From a virus, in the IMG/VR virus record IMGVR_UViG_3300042879_004726, positions 1 through 64,000 of that record: 64,000 bases of DNA, one strand, 5' to 3'. Shown piece by piece: positions 1-36,428 of the stretch (its first letter is position 1; each line of letters starts with the position of its first letter). The position numbers were made by a program, and so were the translations under genes. The notes under the pieces were generated by a model, which saw only the letters and a program-made list of their open reading frames with translations, searched no databases and was not told where the DNA came from.

Positions 1-186
1 TATAAATTCATTAAGAATAGTTTGTGGGAAATATTTTCTTTGAATCTCATCAAATAAATCCCAAAGTCCATTTTCAGATACTCCAGTACACTGGGAAAGT
101 ATTGCAATAATAGAAGATAATACAATTCCTATAATTGCATACTGCTTTATATCTGGTTTTTTATTTCCAAAATTGAAATTAAACAT
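1..186 (-). CDS. Small membrane protein, partial (C-terminus beyond window)
   Basis: The reading frame starts at ATG 186 and stays open for 62 codons to the window edge, so the C-terminus is missing. The protein opens with a short polar stretch (MFNFNFGNKKPD), then one hydrophobic segment at about residues 15-32, then a soluble amphipathic part with LWDLFDEIQR. This looks like a single-pass inner-membrane protein with its C-terminus in the periplasm or cytoplasm. It lies directly downstream of the lysozyme gene, so a spanin-like or other lysis role is possible, but that rests on position only. I do not recognise the family with certainty. The gene is too short for ordinary ORF thresholds. Confidence 0.6.
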   Translation of the reverse strand, partial: MFNFNFGNKKPDIKQYAIIGIVLSSIIAILSQCTGVSENGLWDLFDEIQRKYFPQTILNEFI

Positions 187-189
187 AAA

Positions 190-211
190 TGGGGAGAGCT
201 AACCCTCCCCA
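190..211 (-). terminator. Hairpin after lysozyme gene, possible terminator
   Basis: TGGGGAG and CTCCCCA form a 7-bp GC-rich stem with an 8-nt loop just after the lysozyme stop codon. On the minus strand it is followed by ATTTATGTTT rather than a clean T-run, so it is a weak terminator candidate. It also lies only 4 nt before the ATG of the next gene and could instead affect translation of that gene. Confidence 0.4.
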
Positions 212-212
212 C

Positions 213-220
213 TATTTATT
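213..220 (-). promoter_or_regulatory. Late promoter-like AATAAATA
   Basis: AATAAATA on the minus strand, 27 nt upstream of the ATG at 186, differs at one base from the T4 late octamer TATAAATA. Transcription from it would start inside the adjacent hairpin, so that RNA would not form the full stem. Confidence 0.35.
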
Positions 221-228
221 CTATTGTG

Positions 229-873
229 TCAAACTTCTGCTAGGATCAGTCGGTTGGCATAATTATAAGCAAAATCAGTTCTTGCTCCTTTATGTCCCCA
301 CCCCAACCAAGAATACGCTAAACGCATATAATATTCAATAGGTTTTCCTGGAACTTTCAATCTATCTTCAATACCTCGCCATTGTGGTTCAGTAATAATA
401 TAACGAAGTTGAGTATCAAGTGTAGAAGGGTCTCCACCAATACGAGCAGCAAACTTACCAAGACCATTATATCTTGGAGCATCGGTAAATTGAATCAATC
501 CATAACCACCACTCCTACAAGCACTATAAGACACTCTAGCACCACCTTCACAGATATTAGGAGTGAAGGTAGATTCTTGTCGGATATTGCCCATAATGGT
601 TGCTAGGGCGTTTTTGTCAGTGATTCCTCGTTTCTGTAAGAATTCCAGAGTACGGGACTCATTAGTATTACATCCTTTACAAACTAATCGTTTTACTTTA
701 GGTTTTTCGGGAACAACCTCTTTGGTCTCTGTCTCTTGAGCAGGCGCTTCAGGAATAATTGCAAATGGTGCTTGTACTGAAGATGTTGCCATACTCGGTG
801 CTGGCAGTGTTGCCGCTGATGTTGCAACCGCACCTAAAAGAGCTACGGTTACATTTGTTAGGTTTCTAAGCAT
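229..873 (-). CDS. Lysozyme with signal-like N-terminus (phage tail lysozyme family)
   Basis: Predicted 214-aa peptidoglycan hydrolase. Residues 1-30 (MLRNLTNVTVALLGAVATSA...) have a basic start, a hydrophobic core and Ala-rich exit, like a Sec signal peptide. A Pro/Glu-rich linker with a CKGC motif follows. Residues about 75-210 match the phage tail lysozyme fold: LQKRGITDKNALATIMGN, then IRQESTF with the likely catalytic Glu, a GYGLIQFT segment, and a C-terminal Trp-rich YSWLGWGHKG. Four cysteines (CKGC, ICEGG, SACRSG) may form disulfides outside the cytoplasm. It could be the endolysin or a virion-bound lysin. An early-type and a late-type promoter lie upstream. The family assignment is firm, the exact role less so. 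Confidence 0.75.
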   Translation of the reverse strand: MLRNLTNVTVALLGAVATSAATLPAPSMATSSVQAPFAIIPEAPAQETETKEVVPEKPKVKRLVCKGCNTNESRTLEFLQKRGITDKNALATIMGNIRQESTFTPNICEGGARVSYSACRSGGYGLIQFTDAPRYNGLGKFAARIGGDPSTLDTQLRYIITEPQWRGIEDRLKVPGKPIEYYMRLAYSWLGWGHKGARTDFAYNYANRLILAEV

Positions 874-32741: not shown

Positions 32742-32972
32742 TTACCAGTCTGGATATTGCCAATTTACATTTAAATAAGTTAATCGTTTATTATTAATAA
32801 CTCGTTTTACGGTACATTCTTTACATTCATATGAGTATGATGATGCAACAGGCCCTCTATCCTTGCGAGTTCTATAAAATTCACCTACCAAATTTTTATT
32901 TAACCCACAAGATCTACATTTTCTGTCTGTAAATAATAAGTGACCCAAATTCAGTTGCTTATCAATTTCCAT
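32742..32972 (-). CDS. Small zinc-ribbon protein between gp17 and gp18
   Basis: A 76-aa product starting MEIDKQLNLGHLLFTDRKCR. Two CxxC pairs, CRSC at about residues 19-22 and CKEC at about 50-53, enclose NLVGEFYRTRKDRGP and YSYE, which is a zinc-binding module. The same CxxC...FY..RK.......YEC..C pattern is seen as the N-terminal domain of some phage HNH endonucleases; here no nuclease part follows. It may be a remnant of such an enzyme or a small DNA-binding protein. It starts 6 nt after the gp17 stop. Confidence 0.55.
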   Translation of the reverse strand: MEIDKQLNLGHLLFTDRKCRSCGLNKNLVGEFYRTRKDRGPVASSYSYECKECTVKRVINNKRLTYLNVNWQYPDW

Positions 32973-32978
32973 ATTTTG

Positions 32979-34193
32979 TTAGTATTTCCACATATAATCC
33001 CATTCAGTTGATCTATCTCCATATTCATCTAAAAACCATCTATCTCCATCTTCATCAACAAAGGTCTTTTCTTCATTTAATCCATCAGATATAAATCCAA
33101 ATGGTGACATATCTTGCTCTATTTGATTCTTTTGTTCTTCATATAGTCTTTTTCTTACGTCTTGATCAGTAAGTTCTTTGAAATAATCTTGAGCAACTAA
33201 CCAAGCATAAATGACCAAGCACATTGCTAGGTCATCATTGCAACCTTCCTCAGCCTCAAAAGAATTGTGTTTTTGTATAAAAGTTGTTAATTCTGAAATT
33301 ATTTCATAATCGTTTAATATCAATTTACTTTCTTCAATCATAGTCTTGAGATTAAGACATCCAACTTTTTTAACAGTTTTTGACATCTTAACTCCTAATT
33401 GAGTCTTTTTACCCGAAAATCCTTGCCCAACAATTTGACCCGCCCTTCCTCTCATTGAACACATAAGAAGATTATTATATTCTAAATCATATTGAAGAAT
33501 ACTTGCTACTTGATCTCCAACATCGTTTACTTCACATAGAATATAAGAGTTATTATACGCAACTGCTGCTTCGTGTATTACACTTGGGAACAACATTGGT
33601 TTTATTTCGTTATGCCTATATTTCGCAACAACTTTATGAGGAAACTGAGTGATATCTATTATAGTAAATGCTGAATAATCATTTCCTACGCCTCTAGCAA
33701 CGTCTACAGTAATCAAATAGTCGTGTTCTTCTATAGGGTCCTCATAGACATCTAAACCAGCACTACGGGCCTTTGGGTGGTCATATACGAGCGTTCTGAG
33801 TTTACTTGGTGCAATAAGAGTATCAACAGAACCTAAAAATTCACAATTATGTGATACTATATTATTTGAATAATATAAATGATCAGTACCAGAATTTACA
33901 ATATCATATAATTCTATTGGTTCATTAATGACTTTTGATCTTTTTAAAAAGCAACCACCATTTTTTGTGTAAATTTCTGTAAATTTATCTAAATCTTTTG
34001 CTTTAATTATTCCTTCAATTGTAGATAATGGATGGTCTAAAGAACATTTTAATTCATTTCCATCTGTAAATGTTAAATGTATGTACTTATTCTTTGTTAT
34101 TTTATTAATACCAAAAAAGGATACTAAACCTTCTGGTGAAAGTATTTTGTGTCCTTTTTTGTTTAATACTACGCTTTCAGGAATTGTATGCAC
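32979..34193 (-). CDS. 17: Terminase large subunit gp17, C-terminal half with C-intein
   Basis: A 404-aa precursor: residues 1-116 are the C-half of a split intein, and 117-404 are the gp17 nuclease domain. The nuclease metal-binding motifs are ITVDVARGVGNDYSAF (Asp), ILCEVNDVGDQ (Glu/Asp) and GCNDDLAMC (Asp). The extein starts with Cys+1 (CEFLGSVDTLIAPSK). There is no ATPase domain, so this product alone cannot package DNA and must be joined to the upstream half by trans-splicing. The start is GTG 34193; an in-frame TGA lies just upstream, so no continuous frame with the N-half exists. Confidence 0.9.
   Translation of the reverse strand: MHTIPESVVLNKKGHKILSPEGLVSFFGINKITKNKYIHLTFTDGNELKCSLDHPLSTIEGIIKAKDLDKFTEIYTKNGGCFLKRSKVINEPIELYDIVNSGTDHLYYSNNIVSHNCEFLGSVDTLIAPSKLRTLVYDHPKARSAGLDVYEDPIEEHDYLITVDVARGVGNDYSAFTIIDITQFPHKVVAKYRHNEIKPMLFPSVIHEAAVAYNNSYILCEVNDVGDQVASILQYDLEYNNLLMCSMRGRAGQIVGQGFSGKKTQLGVKMSKTVKKVGCLNLKTMIEESKLILNDYEIISELTTFIQKHNSFEAEEGCNDDLAMCLVIYAWLVAQDYFKELTDQDVRKRLYEEQKNQIEQDMSPFGFISDGLNEEKTFVDEDGDRWFLDEYGDRSTEWDYMWKY
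33846..34193 (-). mobile_element. C-terminal half of atypically split gp17 intein
   Basis: 116 residues from GTG 34193. HKILSPEGLVSFFGINKI, then HLTFTDGNELKCSLDHPL (block B, with D-H), a LYDIVNSGTDHLYYS block F, and the end IVSHN followed by Cys+1. It resembles the C-part of AceL-TerL, which I recall with the same KILSP.G..F.GI.K order and the same insertion site in terminase. Terminal His-Asn and Cys+1 are all present, so it appears active. Confidence 0.88.
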
Positions 34194-34276
34194 TTGTTTA
34201 AAATTTTTTCAGGATAATTTTTATATTCCAATTGTTCTTTTGTGATATTTTTACTGTTCGTTTTTGAGTTGCTCAT
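34169..34276 (-). CDS. Tiny ORF bridging the split gp17 halves
   Basis: A 35-codon frame from ATG 34276 to TAG 34169, in a different frame from both gp17 halves and overlapping the end of the first and the start of the second. It reads MSNSKTNSKNITKEQLEYKN, then YPEKILNKCIQFLKA. The composition looks coding (Lys-rich, helical). It may be the remnant of an endonuclease gene once located between the intein halves, or only chance. There is no evidence of expression. Confidence 0.25.
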   Translation of the reverse strand: MSNSKTNSKNITKEQLEYKNYPEKILNKCIQFLKA

Positions 34277-36008
34277 ATAAGTCACCTATACATACATCTA
34301 TTATACCATTATTTATTGTAGTCTCAAAGGATAACGATTCAAACTCAACCTTAAATTGTTGTTCGCTGGTGTTAGCAATTGTCTGTTTTTTCCATTCTTC
34401 ATCTCTACCAGGAACCTCACTCCAATGAACATCGGTAAAAATATATTCATTTTTACCTTTTTCAGCATCGTGCCACATTCGGTAGAAATGATTCATACCG
34501 TGTGGAGTTGATACAATAATTACTTTTGTCTGTTTACCTGAAGTAATTGTAGGATATACTGATGCGAAGAAAGAATCTGCGATATGATTTGGTACGAACG
34601 CAAATTCATCCAAAAATAAAATATTGAATGACATACCACGAACCGCAGAAGCAGAAGTAGAAGCAGCCAAGATTTTACTTCCATTTTCCAATTCCAATGA
34701 ACCTTTATTCCAAGAAATAATTCCTTGCTGCATCCATTTTGGTAGATTTTCATATGCTGTTTGCAATCTATCTAAAAGTTCTCTTGCAGTTGCTGCCTTG
34801 TTTGCAAGAATACCAATATTTACATTATCATTAAATACTGCATAATGTAAAAGGAATGCAACTACTGTTGTTGAATTGTGTGTAGGTATAAAAGTTTTTC
34901 CACATAAAAATAAATGATCTTGATTATCAACTGAAATGCATTGCATAGGTTCAGTTTCAATTTTACGAATATCTTTAATATAAAGTCTTTTATTTTTTGG
35001 ATGGTCTAAACTATTTTTTTGTCTTTCTAATTTTCTTGGTAACGTAAAAACTTCATATTTATTTGTACAAAAACTTATGGTTCCATATAATCCAGAATAA
35101 CCGGATATTTTTTTGTACCTTAGTCTACTTTTAATACCCAATGAAGATAATAACTCTCTGACTTGATGTAACAATTTTCCATCTTTTTGATAAAATTCAC
35201 AAGCACCATTTGGAGATACTGAACCATCAGTATCCATCAATCCCTTTAAAAGTTCTAATCTTTGTGAAGTTGAAGATCTTAAATATTCTTCTGGAATGAT
35301 TTTTTCAGATATTTTGTTTATATCTTCATATAAACCAGTAATTGCACCATTTGATTTTGAACCATCTCCTAACCAAACGCCAAGAGTATAGGGGTCTATT
35401 GGAAGCTTAATTTCTGGTAAATCAATTGATTCATTTATTTGGATATAAATTGATGACGATTTAAATACTTTTTTAAGACAATTAAATTTTTCTATAATTT
35501 GATTTGTAGTCAGTATTTTTTCTTTATGATACCAATCACTATGAGAAACTTTCCATAAATGTTCACCACATGCTTTTATAATTTCTCCATTATCAAATTC
35601 AATCTCATAAGTATCTATTTGTTGTATAGGAGATTTTCCAATTACTTTTGTAGTTTTCCCATCTCTTGCAAAAATAAGATCACCCACATTCAAATCTCCC
35701 ATATTAGTCCATCCAGTTGGTGTTGGGATGGGTGTATCAAGGGACAACATTTTTCCAGTCTGACGAGGCATCTTACAGATATTAAATCTGTGTTTATGGA
35801 AATTATTAATTAACTTTTCTTGAAAATGATATGGTTTAAATGATTGTAGTCCATGATCAAGAGTAACAATTTTTACATAATTATTTGCAAAATAAACAGG
35901 ATCATTCATACACTTCACAATCTCAAAAACCTGCTCTTCTGTAAACTCGTGAGTGGTATTTGCTTTTTTAAGTAAAGGATTGCCAAGATATACATCATTA
36001 TTTGACAT
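34251..36008 (-). CDS. 17: Terminase large subunit gp17, N-terminal half with two intein segments
   Basis: A 585-aa precursor of the DNA-packaging ATPase. Residues 1-86 and 379-557 are gp17; 87-378 are a complete intein; 558-585 are a short N-intein. The extein has KMPRQTGK|STTVVAFLLHY, the Walker A loop cut exactly by the first intein, then ILFLDEFAFVP (Walker B) and VIIVSTPHG (coupling motif). It ends QQFKVEFE before the split intein. After both splicing events and joining to the C-half, gp17 would be about 553 aa, the usual size. Unspliced protein has a disrupted P-loop and should lack ATPase activity. Confidence 0.92.
   Translation of the reverse strand: MSNNDVYLGNPLLKKANTTHEFTEEQVFEIVKCMNDPVYFANNYVKIVTLDHGLQSFKPYHFQEKLINNFHKHRFNICKMPRQTGKMLSLDTPIPTPTGWTNMGDLNVGDLIFARDGKTTKVIGKSPIQQIDTYEIEFDNGEIIKACGEHLWKVSHSDWYHKEKILTTNQIIEKFNCLKKVFKSSSIYIQINESIDLPEIKLPIDPYTLGVWLGDGSKSNGAITGLYEDINKISEKIIPEEYLRSSTSQRLELLKGLMDTDGSVSPNGACEFYQKDGKLLHQVRELLSSLGIKSRLRYKKISGYSGLYGTISFCTNKYEVFTLPRKLERQKNSLDHPKNKRLYIKDIRKIETEPMQCISVDNQDHLFLCGKTFIPTHNSTTVVAFLLHYAVFNDNVNIGILANKAATARELLDRLQTAYENLPKWMQQGIISWNKGSLELENGSKILAASTSASAVRGMSFNILFLDEFAFVPNHIADSFFASVYPTITSGKQTKVIIVSTPHGMNHFYRMWHDAEKGKNEYIFTDVHWSEVPGRDEEWKKQTIANTSEQQFKVEFESLSFETTINNGIIDVCIGDLYEQLKNEQ
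34254..34337 (-). mobile_element. Ultra-short N-intein of split gp17 intein
   Basis: 28 residues at the end of the N-half, starting at Ser1 (SLSFETTINNGI) and ending CIGDLYEQLKNEQ before the stop. It aligns in layout with the roughly 25-residue AceL-TerL N-intein, which as I recall ends in a similar IEDLYKRL. The splice donor is Glu in VEFE|S. Use of Ser rather than Cys at position 1 is the main difference. Confidence 0.85.
34875..35750 (-). mobile_element. Class 3-type intein in the gp17 Walker A loop, LAGLIDADG remnant
   Basis: 292 residues, from Met1 (MLSLDTPIPTPTGWTNMGDL) to His291-Asn292, followed by Ser+1. The usual Cys/Ser nucleophile at position 1 is absent. The three class 3 marker residues are present: Trp66 two residues after block B His64 (GEHLW), Cys271 at block F position 4 (MQCISV), and Thr290 in block G (PTHN). 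Two LAGLIDADG-like motifs lie at 123-131 (LGVWLGDGS) and 167-177 (LLKGLMDTDGS), but the gap between them is only about 36 residues, shorter than usual, which suggests an internal deletion in the endonuclease. Confidence 0.88.
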
Positions 36009-36014
36009 AATATA

Positions 36015-36428
36015 TTAACCTTTATTTTTTAAGTATAAAATTGCATTTTCTAAATTTTTAATATTATCCTTAAAATTTCCTAGACCTCTGTTACAATGAT
36101 GGCATAACATGCCACGAAATTTTCCTGTTCTGTGATTGTGGTCCATAACTAATGAATAAATTTTTCCAACATGAATATTATTTCTAGAACCTGCTACTTC
36201 ATTTCCACCACATATATCGCACTTTTCTTGTTGTTTTAATTTTCTAACCTCATCATCACTTAATTGCCCTCTAAATTTTCCTCTACATATTTCTGCTCTA
36301 TAAGTTGCCCTGCATTTTCTACACCAACTATCCAATCCGTCTTTACATTTGTTATGCGGAGGAAAATTTATAGTGTCTCTTGGTTTATTTTCTTTACATC
36401 TAGTGCAAGTTTTTGTATTCATGCCCAT
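36015..36428 (-). CDS. Endonuclease VII-like HNH protein
   Basis: A 137-aa product. An N-terminal zinc module (CTRCKENKPRDT..., CRKCRATYR) is followed by a second pair CDICGG and the endonuclease VII core: SLVMDHNHRTGKFRGMLCHH, CNRGLGNFKDN, then a helix ENAILYLKN. The DH..RTG..RG.LC..CN..LG pattern is that of the recombination endonuclease VII family (T4 gp49 resolves DNA junctions before packaging). Its place beside the terminase fits either a packaging-linked resolvase or a mobile HNH gene. ATG 36428 was used; 36422 is also possible. A CATAAATA lies upstream. Confidence 0.72.
   Translation of the reverse strand: MGMNTKTCTRCKENKPRDTINFPPHNKCKDGLDSWCRKCRATYRAEICRGKFRGQLSDDEVRKLKQQEKCDICGGNEVAGSRNNIHVGKIYSLVMDHNHRTGKFRGMLCHHCNRGLGNFKDNIKNLENAILYLKNKG

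What the first reader, a model, noticed from the sequence alone, without database searches (positions are those of the whole stretch)
34875..35750. gp17 Walker A intein starts with Met and carries the class 3 W-C-T set
Position 1 of the intein is Met (AAA ATG TTG), so standard splicing through an N-terminal Cys or Ser is impossible. Trp66 (GEHLW), Cys271 (MQC in block F) and Thr290 (PTHN) are exactly the residues that define class 3 inteins, which start splicing from the block F Cys. The intein interrupts the P-loop between Lys and Ser (TGK|STT), so only spliced protein can bind ATP. A class 3 intein and a split class 1 intein inside the same protein would be a rare combination.
Basis: partly seen in the sequence, partly recalled or inferred. 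Interest (0 to 1): 0.9.

Follow-up and report, generated by a model that had tools for sequence, protein, structure and literature searches.

The report
Class 3 intein in phage packaging motor
A marine T4-like phage carries, inside the ATP-binding loop of its DNA-packaging motor, a self-removing protein insert of the known "class 3" kind; the identification holds up, but this kind of insert at this place, even alongside a second split insert, turns out to be fairly common.

Summary
Window 34875-35750 (-) encodes a 292-residue insert between Lys and Ser of the gp17 (TerL) Walker A motif. Residue 1 is Met, and Trp66, Cys271 and Thr290 lie exactly on B:12, F:4 and G:5. The best PDB matches are the experimentally studied class 3 DnaB inteins (E 2.7e-22), and the WCT residues align one to one. 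A confident AlphaFold model (pLDDT 87) superposes on them over the whole splicing domain. In 78 distinct inteins from the same site, His64, Trp66, Cys271, Thr290, His291 and Asn292 never vary, while residue 1 varies. The class 3 assignment is very likely right; splicing itself is untested. "Rare combination" is not supported: 21 of 85 related contigs with both sites readable also carry the split class 1 insertion. RaK2-like Klebsiella phages carry the same kind of intein at the same site, and M. smegmatis DnaB already combines class 3 and class 1 inteins. Each deletion lies between 8-bp direct repeats, so both inteins are probably immobile. New member of a known kind.

The parts
34875..35750 (-). 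class 3 intein, 292 aa, inserted in the Walker A motif of gp17/TerL (TGK|STT)
   Evidence: empty site in S-SM2 TerL
35748..35750 (-). intein residue 1, Met (A:1, non-nucleophilic)
   Evidence: position varies A/M/S/K/Q/D/P in relatives
35553..35561 (-). His64 (B:10), Leu65, Trp66 (B:12) of block B; Cys61 (B:7) at 35568-35570
   Evidence: aligned to His65/Trp67 of MchDnaB1 6rix and Msm DnaBi1 6bs8; His64 and Trp66 78/78 invariant
34938..34940 (-). Cys271 (F:4), inferred initiating nucleophile
   Evidence: aligned to Cys124 of MchDnaB1 and Cys118 of Msm DnaBi1; 78/78 invariant
34875..34883 (-). Thr290 (G:5), His291, Asn292, C-terminal splice junction
35223..35384 (-). remnant LAGLIDADG homing endonuclease: motif 1 (LGVWLGDG) to motif 2 (LLKGLMDTDG); both catalytic-type Asp (129, 173) kept, 38 aa between them missing relative to L004-L006
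   Evidence: Pfam LAGLIDADG_3 E 2.4e-11; 114-bp in-frame deletion at an 8-bp GAAAAAAT direct repeat
34251..36008 (-). gp17/TerL N-terminal ORF: ATPase domain, class 3 intein, N-half of split intein
   Evidence: Pfam Terminase_6N E 4.6e-18
34254..34337 (-). N-half (28 aa, Ser1) of an atypically split class 1 intein at FE|CEFLGS
33846..34193 (-). C-half (116 aa, GTG start, ends VSHN) of the split intein
   Evidence: phmmer to CatC 6dsl E 4.5e-17
32979..34193 (-). gp17/TerL C-terminal ORF: C-intein half plus RNaseH-like nuclease domain
   Evidence: Pfam Terminase_6C E 7.2e-15

Best explanation
A cis-splicing class 3 intein in the P-loop of a T4-like cyanophage terminase large subunit. Shown by sequence and comparison: the HINT splicing domain with the full class 3 residue set, no nucleophile at position 1, exact insertion between P-loop Lys and Ser, purifying selection, and a shortened LAGLIDADG domain. 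Inferred from characterised class 3 relatives: Cys271, activated by His64 (held by Thr290; Trp66 is structural), attacks the Lys(-1)-Met1 bond to give a block F branched thioester; Ser+1 takes over the N-extein; Asn292 cyclises with His291; the exteins rejoin as GKS. A second, trans-splicing event at FE|CEFLGS must then join the ATPase and nuclease halves before a working packaging motor exists. The homing endonuclease of this copy is most likely dead, so the intein is kept because loss of splicing would destroy an essential P-loop.
For: phmmer to PDB: top three hits are the class 3 DnaB inteins 6rix, 6riy and 6bs8 (E 2.7e-22 to 4e-21), with W66, C271 and T290 aligned to W67, C124 and T143; class 1 gp41-1 only reaches 3.7e-4, and its WCT-engineered variant 1.5e-5. 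A profile of 43 relatives gives 6.9e-31 for 6bs8. AlphaFold model of the intein plus flanks: pLDDT 86.9, pTM 0.87. Structure alignment: 6bs8 Z 20.7, rmsd 1.5 A over 126 of 127 residues, model 11..302 on chain 1..139, i.e. intein residue 1 to residue 1 and Asn292 to Asn139. 78 distinct same-site inteins: H64, W66, C271, T290, H291 and N292 all 78/78, +1 always Ser or Thr, residue 1 variable. dN well below dS in the splicing blocks against L007, L008, L009 and L016. WCT definition at B:12, F:4, G:5: PMC5050341 and PMC7891396.
Against: No splicing has been measured for this intein or, as far as found here, for any intein of this clade. B:7 is Cys (CxxH); PMC7891396 names Gly and Asp as characterised there, plus Ser in AceL NrdHF, so kinetics could differ. 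PI-SceI entries score slightly higher than the DnaB inteins in the structure list because they also contain an endonuclease domain. The VIA tool gives alignment ranges, not residue pairs, so a residue-level structural superposition was not printed.
Confidence: 0.93

Rival explanations
1. It is a class 2 intein: no position 1 nucleophile, the +1 residue attacks the N-junction directly, and the block F Cys is incidental.
For: Position 1 is Met and +1 is Ser.
Against: Cys271, Trp66 and Thr290 are each invariant in 78/78 relatives and align to the WCT residues of solved class 3 inteins. [quoted passage not shown]
Confidence: 0.03
2. It is a decaying, splicing-defective intein, like the Arthrobacter Arth_1007 pseudogene (PMC3196547, listed); the truncated endonuclease domain has broken the fold.
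For: 38 aa are missing from the endonuclease domain relative to L004-L006.
Against: The ORF is open; every splicing residue is kept; the splicing blocks are conserved and the C-terminal block is identical in L004; gp17 is essential in T4-like phages and the insert splits its P-loop; the model keeps a confident HINT domain without the 38 aa. L017-L019 independently lost endonuclease sequence and also keep all splicing residues.
Confidence: 0.04
3. Side rival on mobility, compatible with class 3: the 114-bp gap is an assembly error and the real element still has a full, active endonuclease.
For: The deletion lies at an 8-bp repeat, where short-read assemblers can err; L004-L006 carry the full version.
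Against: Deletions between short repeats are normal in phage DNA. The deletion is in frame, and the window also differs from L004 by substitutions. The split intein in the same gene shows a second repeat-bounded deletion of 1,044 bp.
Confidence: 0.15

Closest known systems
Mycobacterial DnaB-b class 3 inteins (Msm DnaBi1, MchDnaB1; PDB 6bs8, 6rix, 6riy)
   Same: Full splicing residue set and fold; insertion in the P-loop with the P-loop Ser as +1 (PMC6195587); best PDB sequence hits.
   Different: Msm DnaBi1 is a mini-intein without endonuclease in a bacterial helicase; A1 and Asp62 at B:7, against M1 and Cys61 here.
Inteins in TerL of Klebsiella jumbo phages RaK2, K64-1 and fENko-Kae01
   Same: P-loop site (read here in RaK2 and fENko), WCT residues, LAGLIDADG domain and Cys at B:7; the window intein groups with RaK2 and fENko in the tree. 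Hint plus LAGLIDADG in RaK2 and K64-1 TerL is published (PMC5259590).
   Different: About 38-43% identity; full-length endonuclease region; A1 in RaK2 and fENko; different host.
Synechococcus phage B23 TerL intein and about 60 relatives in viral contigs
   Same: Same site in closely related TerLs, same WCT set.
   Different: A distinct lineage with Asp at B:7, usually Ala1; B23 is 44% identical to the window intein.
Mycobacteriophage TerL inteins TerL1-a to -e (PMC5050341)
   Same: TerL1-a sits between P-loop Lys and Thr; TerL1-c and -e are class 3; Bethlehem and Gaia copies were shown to splice.
   Different: The TerL1-c and -e class 3 inteins are not at the P-loop; different terminase family.
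AceL-TerL / GOS-TerL / Cat atypically split inteins (second intein of this gene)
   Same: 28-aa N-half, homologous C-half (CatC 6dsl, E 4.5e-17), same kind of host protein.
   Different: Ser1 rather than Cys1; endonuclease gene between the halves deleted in the window.

Membership tests
class 3 intein | no Cys, Ser or Thr nucleophile at position A:1 | tested here: met
   Met1; residue 1 varies freely in 78 relatives
class 3 intein | Trp at B:12 | tested here: met
   Trp66 aligned to Trp67 of 6rix/6bs8
class 3 intein | Cys at F:4 in place of the class 1 Asp | tested here: met
   Cys271 aligned to Cys124 of MchDnaB1 and Cys118 of Msm DnaBi1
class 3 intein | Thr at G:5 | tested here: met
   Thr290, directly before His291-Asn292
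class 3 intein | B:10 His, G:6 His, terminal Asn, +1 Ser/Thr/Cys | tested here: met
   His64, His291, Asn292, Ser+1
class 3 intein | HINT fold | tested here: met
   model pLDDT 86.9; 6bs8 Z 20.7, rmsd 1.5 A over 126 residues
class 3 intein | block F branched intermediate; block F Cys essential | not testable with these tools
   needs expression and mutagenesis
LAGLIDADG intein homing endonuclease | two LAGLIDADG motifs with catalytic acids | tested here: met
   LGVWLGDG and LLKGLMDTDG with Asp129 and Asp173
LAGLIDADG intein homing endonuclease | complete domain between the motifs | tested here: not met
   38 residues missing relative to L004-L006
LAGLIDADG intein homing endonuclease | cleaves the intein-free allele | not testable with these tools
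   needs a cleavage assay
atypically split class 1 intein (AceL-TerL/Cat type), second intein | N-half of 15-37 aa on a separate ORF, nucleophile at position 1 | tested here: met
   28 aa, Ser1, stop at 34251; C-half ORF from 34193; length range from PMC13014065
atypically split class 1 intein (AceL-TerL/Cat type), second intein | sequence homology to characterised members | tested here: met
   CatC 6dsl E 4.5e-17
atypically split class 1 intein (AceL-TerL/Cat type), second intein | trans-splicing | not testable with these tools
   needs co-expression of the two halves

The most novel reading that the evidence does not exclude
Cys61 at B:7 (CxxH), beside the scissile bond, and the invariant Cys283 may pair with the catalytic Cys271 under oxidising conditions, making P-loop repair of the packaging ATPase, and so DNA packaging, redox-gated in a photosynthetic host, as shown for Cys118-Cys48 of M. 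smegmatis DnaBi1. Nothing here tests this.
Probability: 0.07. Interest if true: 0.65.

Novelty: new member of a known kind. Interest (0 to 1): 0.35.

Why it matters
It adds a clean, well-conserved set of class 3 inteins (78 distinct sequences, with all core splicing residues fixed and residue 1 free to change) from the P-loop of phage packaging motors, where the splicing nucleophile is also the Mg-binding P-loop residue. Two separate class 3 lineages, and in L040 a split class 1 intein, occupy the same codon junction, so the site can be used to compare how different splicing chemistries colonise one target. The window copy shows both inteins of one gene losing their endonucleases while the splicing domains are kept, as the homing-cycle model predicts.

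Tried and rejected
Class 1 reading with Met1 misread: rejected, since near relatives read the same Met1 and residue 1 varies across 78 inteins. First AlphaFold run with 13 sequences gave pLDDT 66.5 and was superseded by the 43-sequence run. Pfam and NCBIfam gave no intein splicing-domain match above cut-off for the N-terminal ORF; the PDB sequence search is nevertheless unambiguous. The idea that ORF 32742-32972 is a truncated homing endonuclease was dropped: it is conserved downstream of TerL in many related contigs and in the intein-free phage S-SM2. The paper library gave no full text holding AceL-TerL together with terminase; that the AceL-TerL insertion site is FE|CEFLG is from memory.

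Full report
What was checked. The gp17 ORF on the minus strand (34251..36008, 585 aa) matches the T4-type terminase N-terminal domain (Pfam Terminase_6N, E 4.6e-18) and contains a LAGLIDADG_3 domain (E 2.4e-11). The insert is codons 87-378, window 34875-35750, 292 residues, with M1, C61, H64, W66, D129, D173, C271, C283, T290, H291 and N292, followed by Ser.

The junctions are exact. The intein-free TerL of Synechococcus phage S-SM2 reads MPRQTGKSTTVV and VEFECEFLGS. Removing the Walker A insert and the second, split intein from the window sequence gives a 553-aa protein, 85% identical to S-SM2 TerL with only 6 gap columns, and continuous at both sites.

Class. Against all PDB chains the insert hits the class 3 DnaB inteins of M. 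chimaera (6rix, 6riy) and M. smegmatis (6bs8) first, E 2.7e-22 to 4e-21. W66 pairs with W67, C271 with C124 (C118 in Msm) and T290 with T143. The class 1 gp41-1 intein is far weaker (3.7e-4; its WCT-engineered variant 1.5e-5). A profile of 43 same-site sequences confirms this (6.9e-31). The WCT positions B:12, F:4 and G:5 define the class (PMC5050341; PMC7891396). An AlphaFold model from the 43-sequence alignment (pLDDT 86.9, pTM 0.87) aligns to 6bs8 at Z 20.7, 1.5 A over 126 of 127 residues, first residue to first and last to last. Entries with both splicing and endonuclease domains (PI-SceI) score slightly higher because more residues align.

Comparative test. Three scans of viral contigs and the annotated phages B23 and fENko-Kae01 gave 108 inteins at the site, 78 distinct. 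His at B:10, Trp at B:12, Cys at F:4, Thr at G:5, His at G:6, Asn at G:7 and also Cys283 are 78/78; +1 is Ser or Thr in all. Residue 1 is A 56, M 13, S 4, K 2, Q 1, D 1, P 1. A residue that changes this freely is unlikely to be the initiating nucleophile, whereas block F Cys is fixed. Pairwise dN is several-fold below dS in the splicing blocks against L007, L008, L009 and L016.

Two lineages share the site. In a maximum-likelihood tree the window intein groups with RaK2 and fENko (Cys, or Ser in L022, at B:7), apart from the B23-like lineage (Asp at B:7) found in closely related terminases. Against L007 and L008 the intein is closer than the N-extein (85% and 82% in the first splicing block against 65% and 58%), which suggests horizontal movement of the intein. 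L040 carries Cys1 and an ending VSHN at the same junction, with the N part ending at a stop, i.e. apparently a split class 1 intein.

The combination is not rare. Among contigs found by intein similarity alone with the second site readable, 21 of 85 also carry an insertion at FE|CEFLGS. Contigs were not otherwise de-replicated, so a few may be the same phage sampled twice. L042 and L043 carry a third intein in TerL. M. smegmatis DnaB has a class 3 intein in its P-loop and a class 1 intein elsewhere (PMC6195587).

Endonuclease loss. Relative to L004 (otherwise about 99% identical) the window intein lacks 114 bp in frame between two copies of GAAAAAAT, removing 38 residues between the LAGLIDADG motifs. 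In the split intein, L028 has a 386-residue open frame in the gap between the halves; the window lacks 1,044 bp of it, bounded by AATTGGAA repeats. Both inteins are therefore probably fixed but immobile. L017-L019 show an independent loss in the class 3 endonuclease, including the first motif (WLGDG to WLSGG), again with all splicing residues intact.

Mechanism. From the solved and mutated relatives (PMC6195587, PMC7664689, PMC7891396): Cys271 attacks the Lys-Met1 bond, Ser+1 takes the acyl group, Asn292 cyclises, and the P-loop GKS is restored. These steps are inferred. Because the P-loop is split by 292 residues, unspliced gp17 should not bind ATP (inference).

Verdict. A well-supported class 3 intein at a classic P-loop insertion point: a new member of a known kind. 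The less usual features are Cys at B:7 and the double loss of endonucleases.

Noticed in passing
window 35290-35330 (site of deletion), compared with L004:689-820: In-frame 114-bp deletion in the class 3 intein's endonuclease domain, bounded by 8-bp GAAAAAAT direct repeats; 38 residues lost.
   Followed up: yes
window 34190-34260, compared with L028:3070-4230: The endonuclease gene between the halves of the split intein is deleted (1,044 bp) at AATTGGAA direct repeats, leaving a micro-ORF; the C-half starts with GTG where relatives have ATG.
   Followed up: partly
L040:115-1560: A Cys1 intein, apparently split (N part ends at a stop), with VSHN end, sits at the same P-loop junction (GK|C...VSHN|TTT) that holds class 3 inteins in the closely related terminases L042 and L043.
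   Followed up: partly
L042:113-3507 and L043:1945-5339: Terminase with three inteins: class 3 in the P-loop (Pro1), a cis intein at VS|TPKG that starts with Cys and ends in Gln (GHQ|T), and a Ser1 split intein at FE|CSFLGS.
   Followed up: partly
window 36015-36428 (-): Endonuclease VII-like ORF (Pfam E 2.4e-15) directly upstream of gp17; no match in the upstream 4.7 kb of the near-identical L006, so it looks like a recent free-standing homing endonuclease arrival.
   Followed up: partly
window 35568-35570 and 34902-34904: Cys61 at B:7 (Cys in 17 of 78 inteins, Asp in 60) and invariant Cys283 in block F; possible redox partners of Cys271.
   Followed up: no
L031, L044 and two further distinct inteins: Same-site inteins with the full WCT set but Ser at position 1; whether Ser1 takes part in splicing is open.
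   Followed up: no
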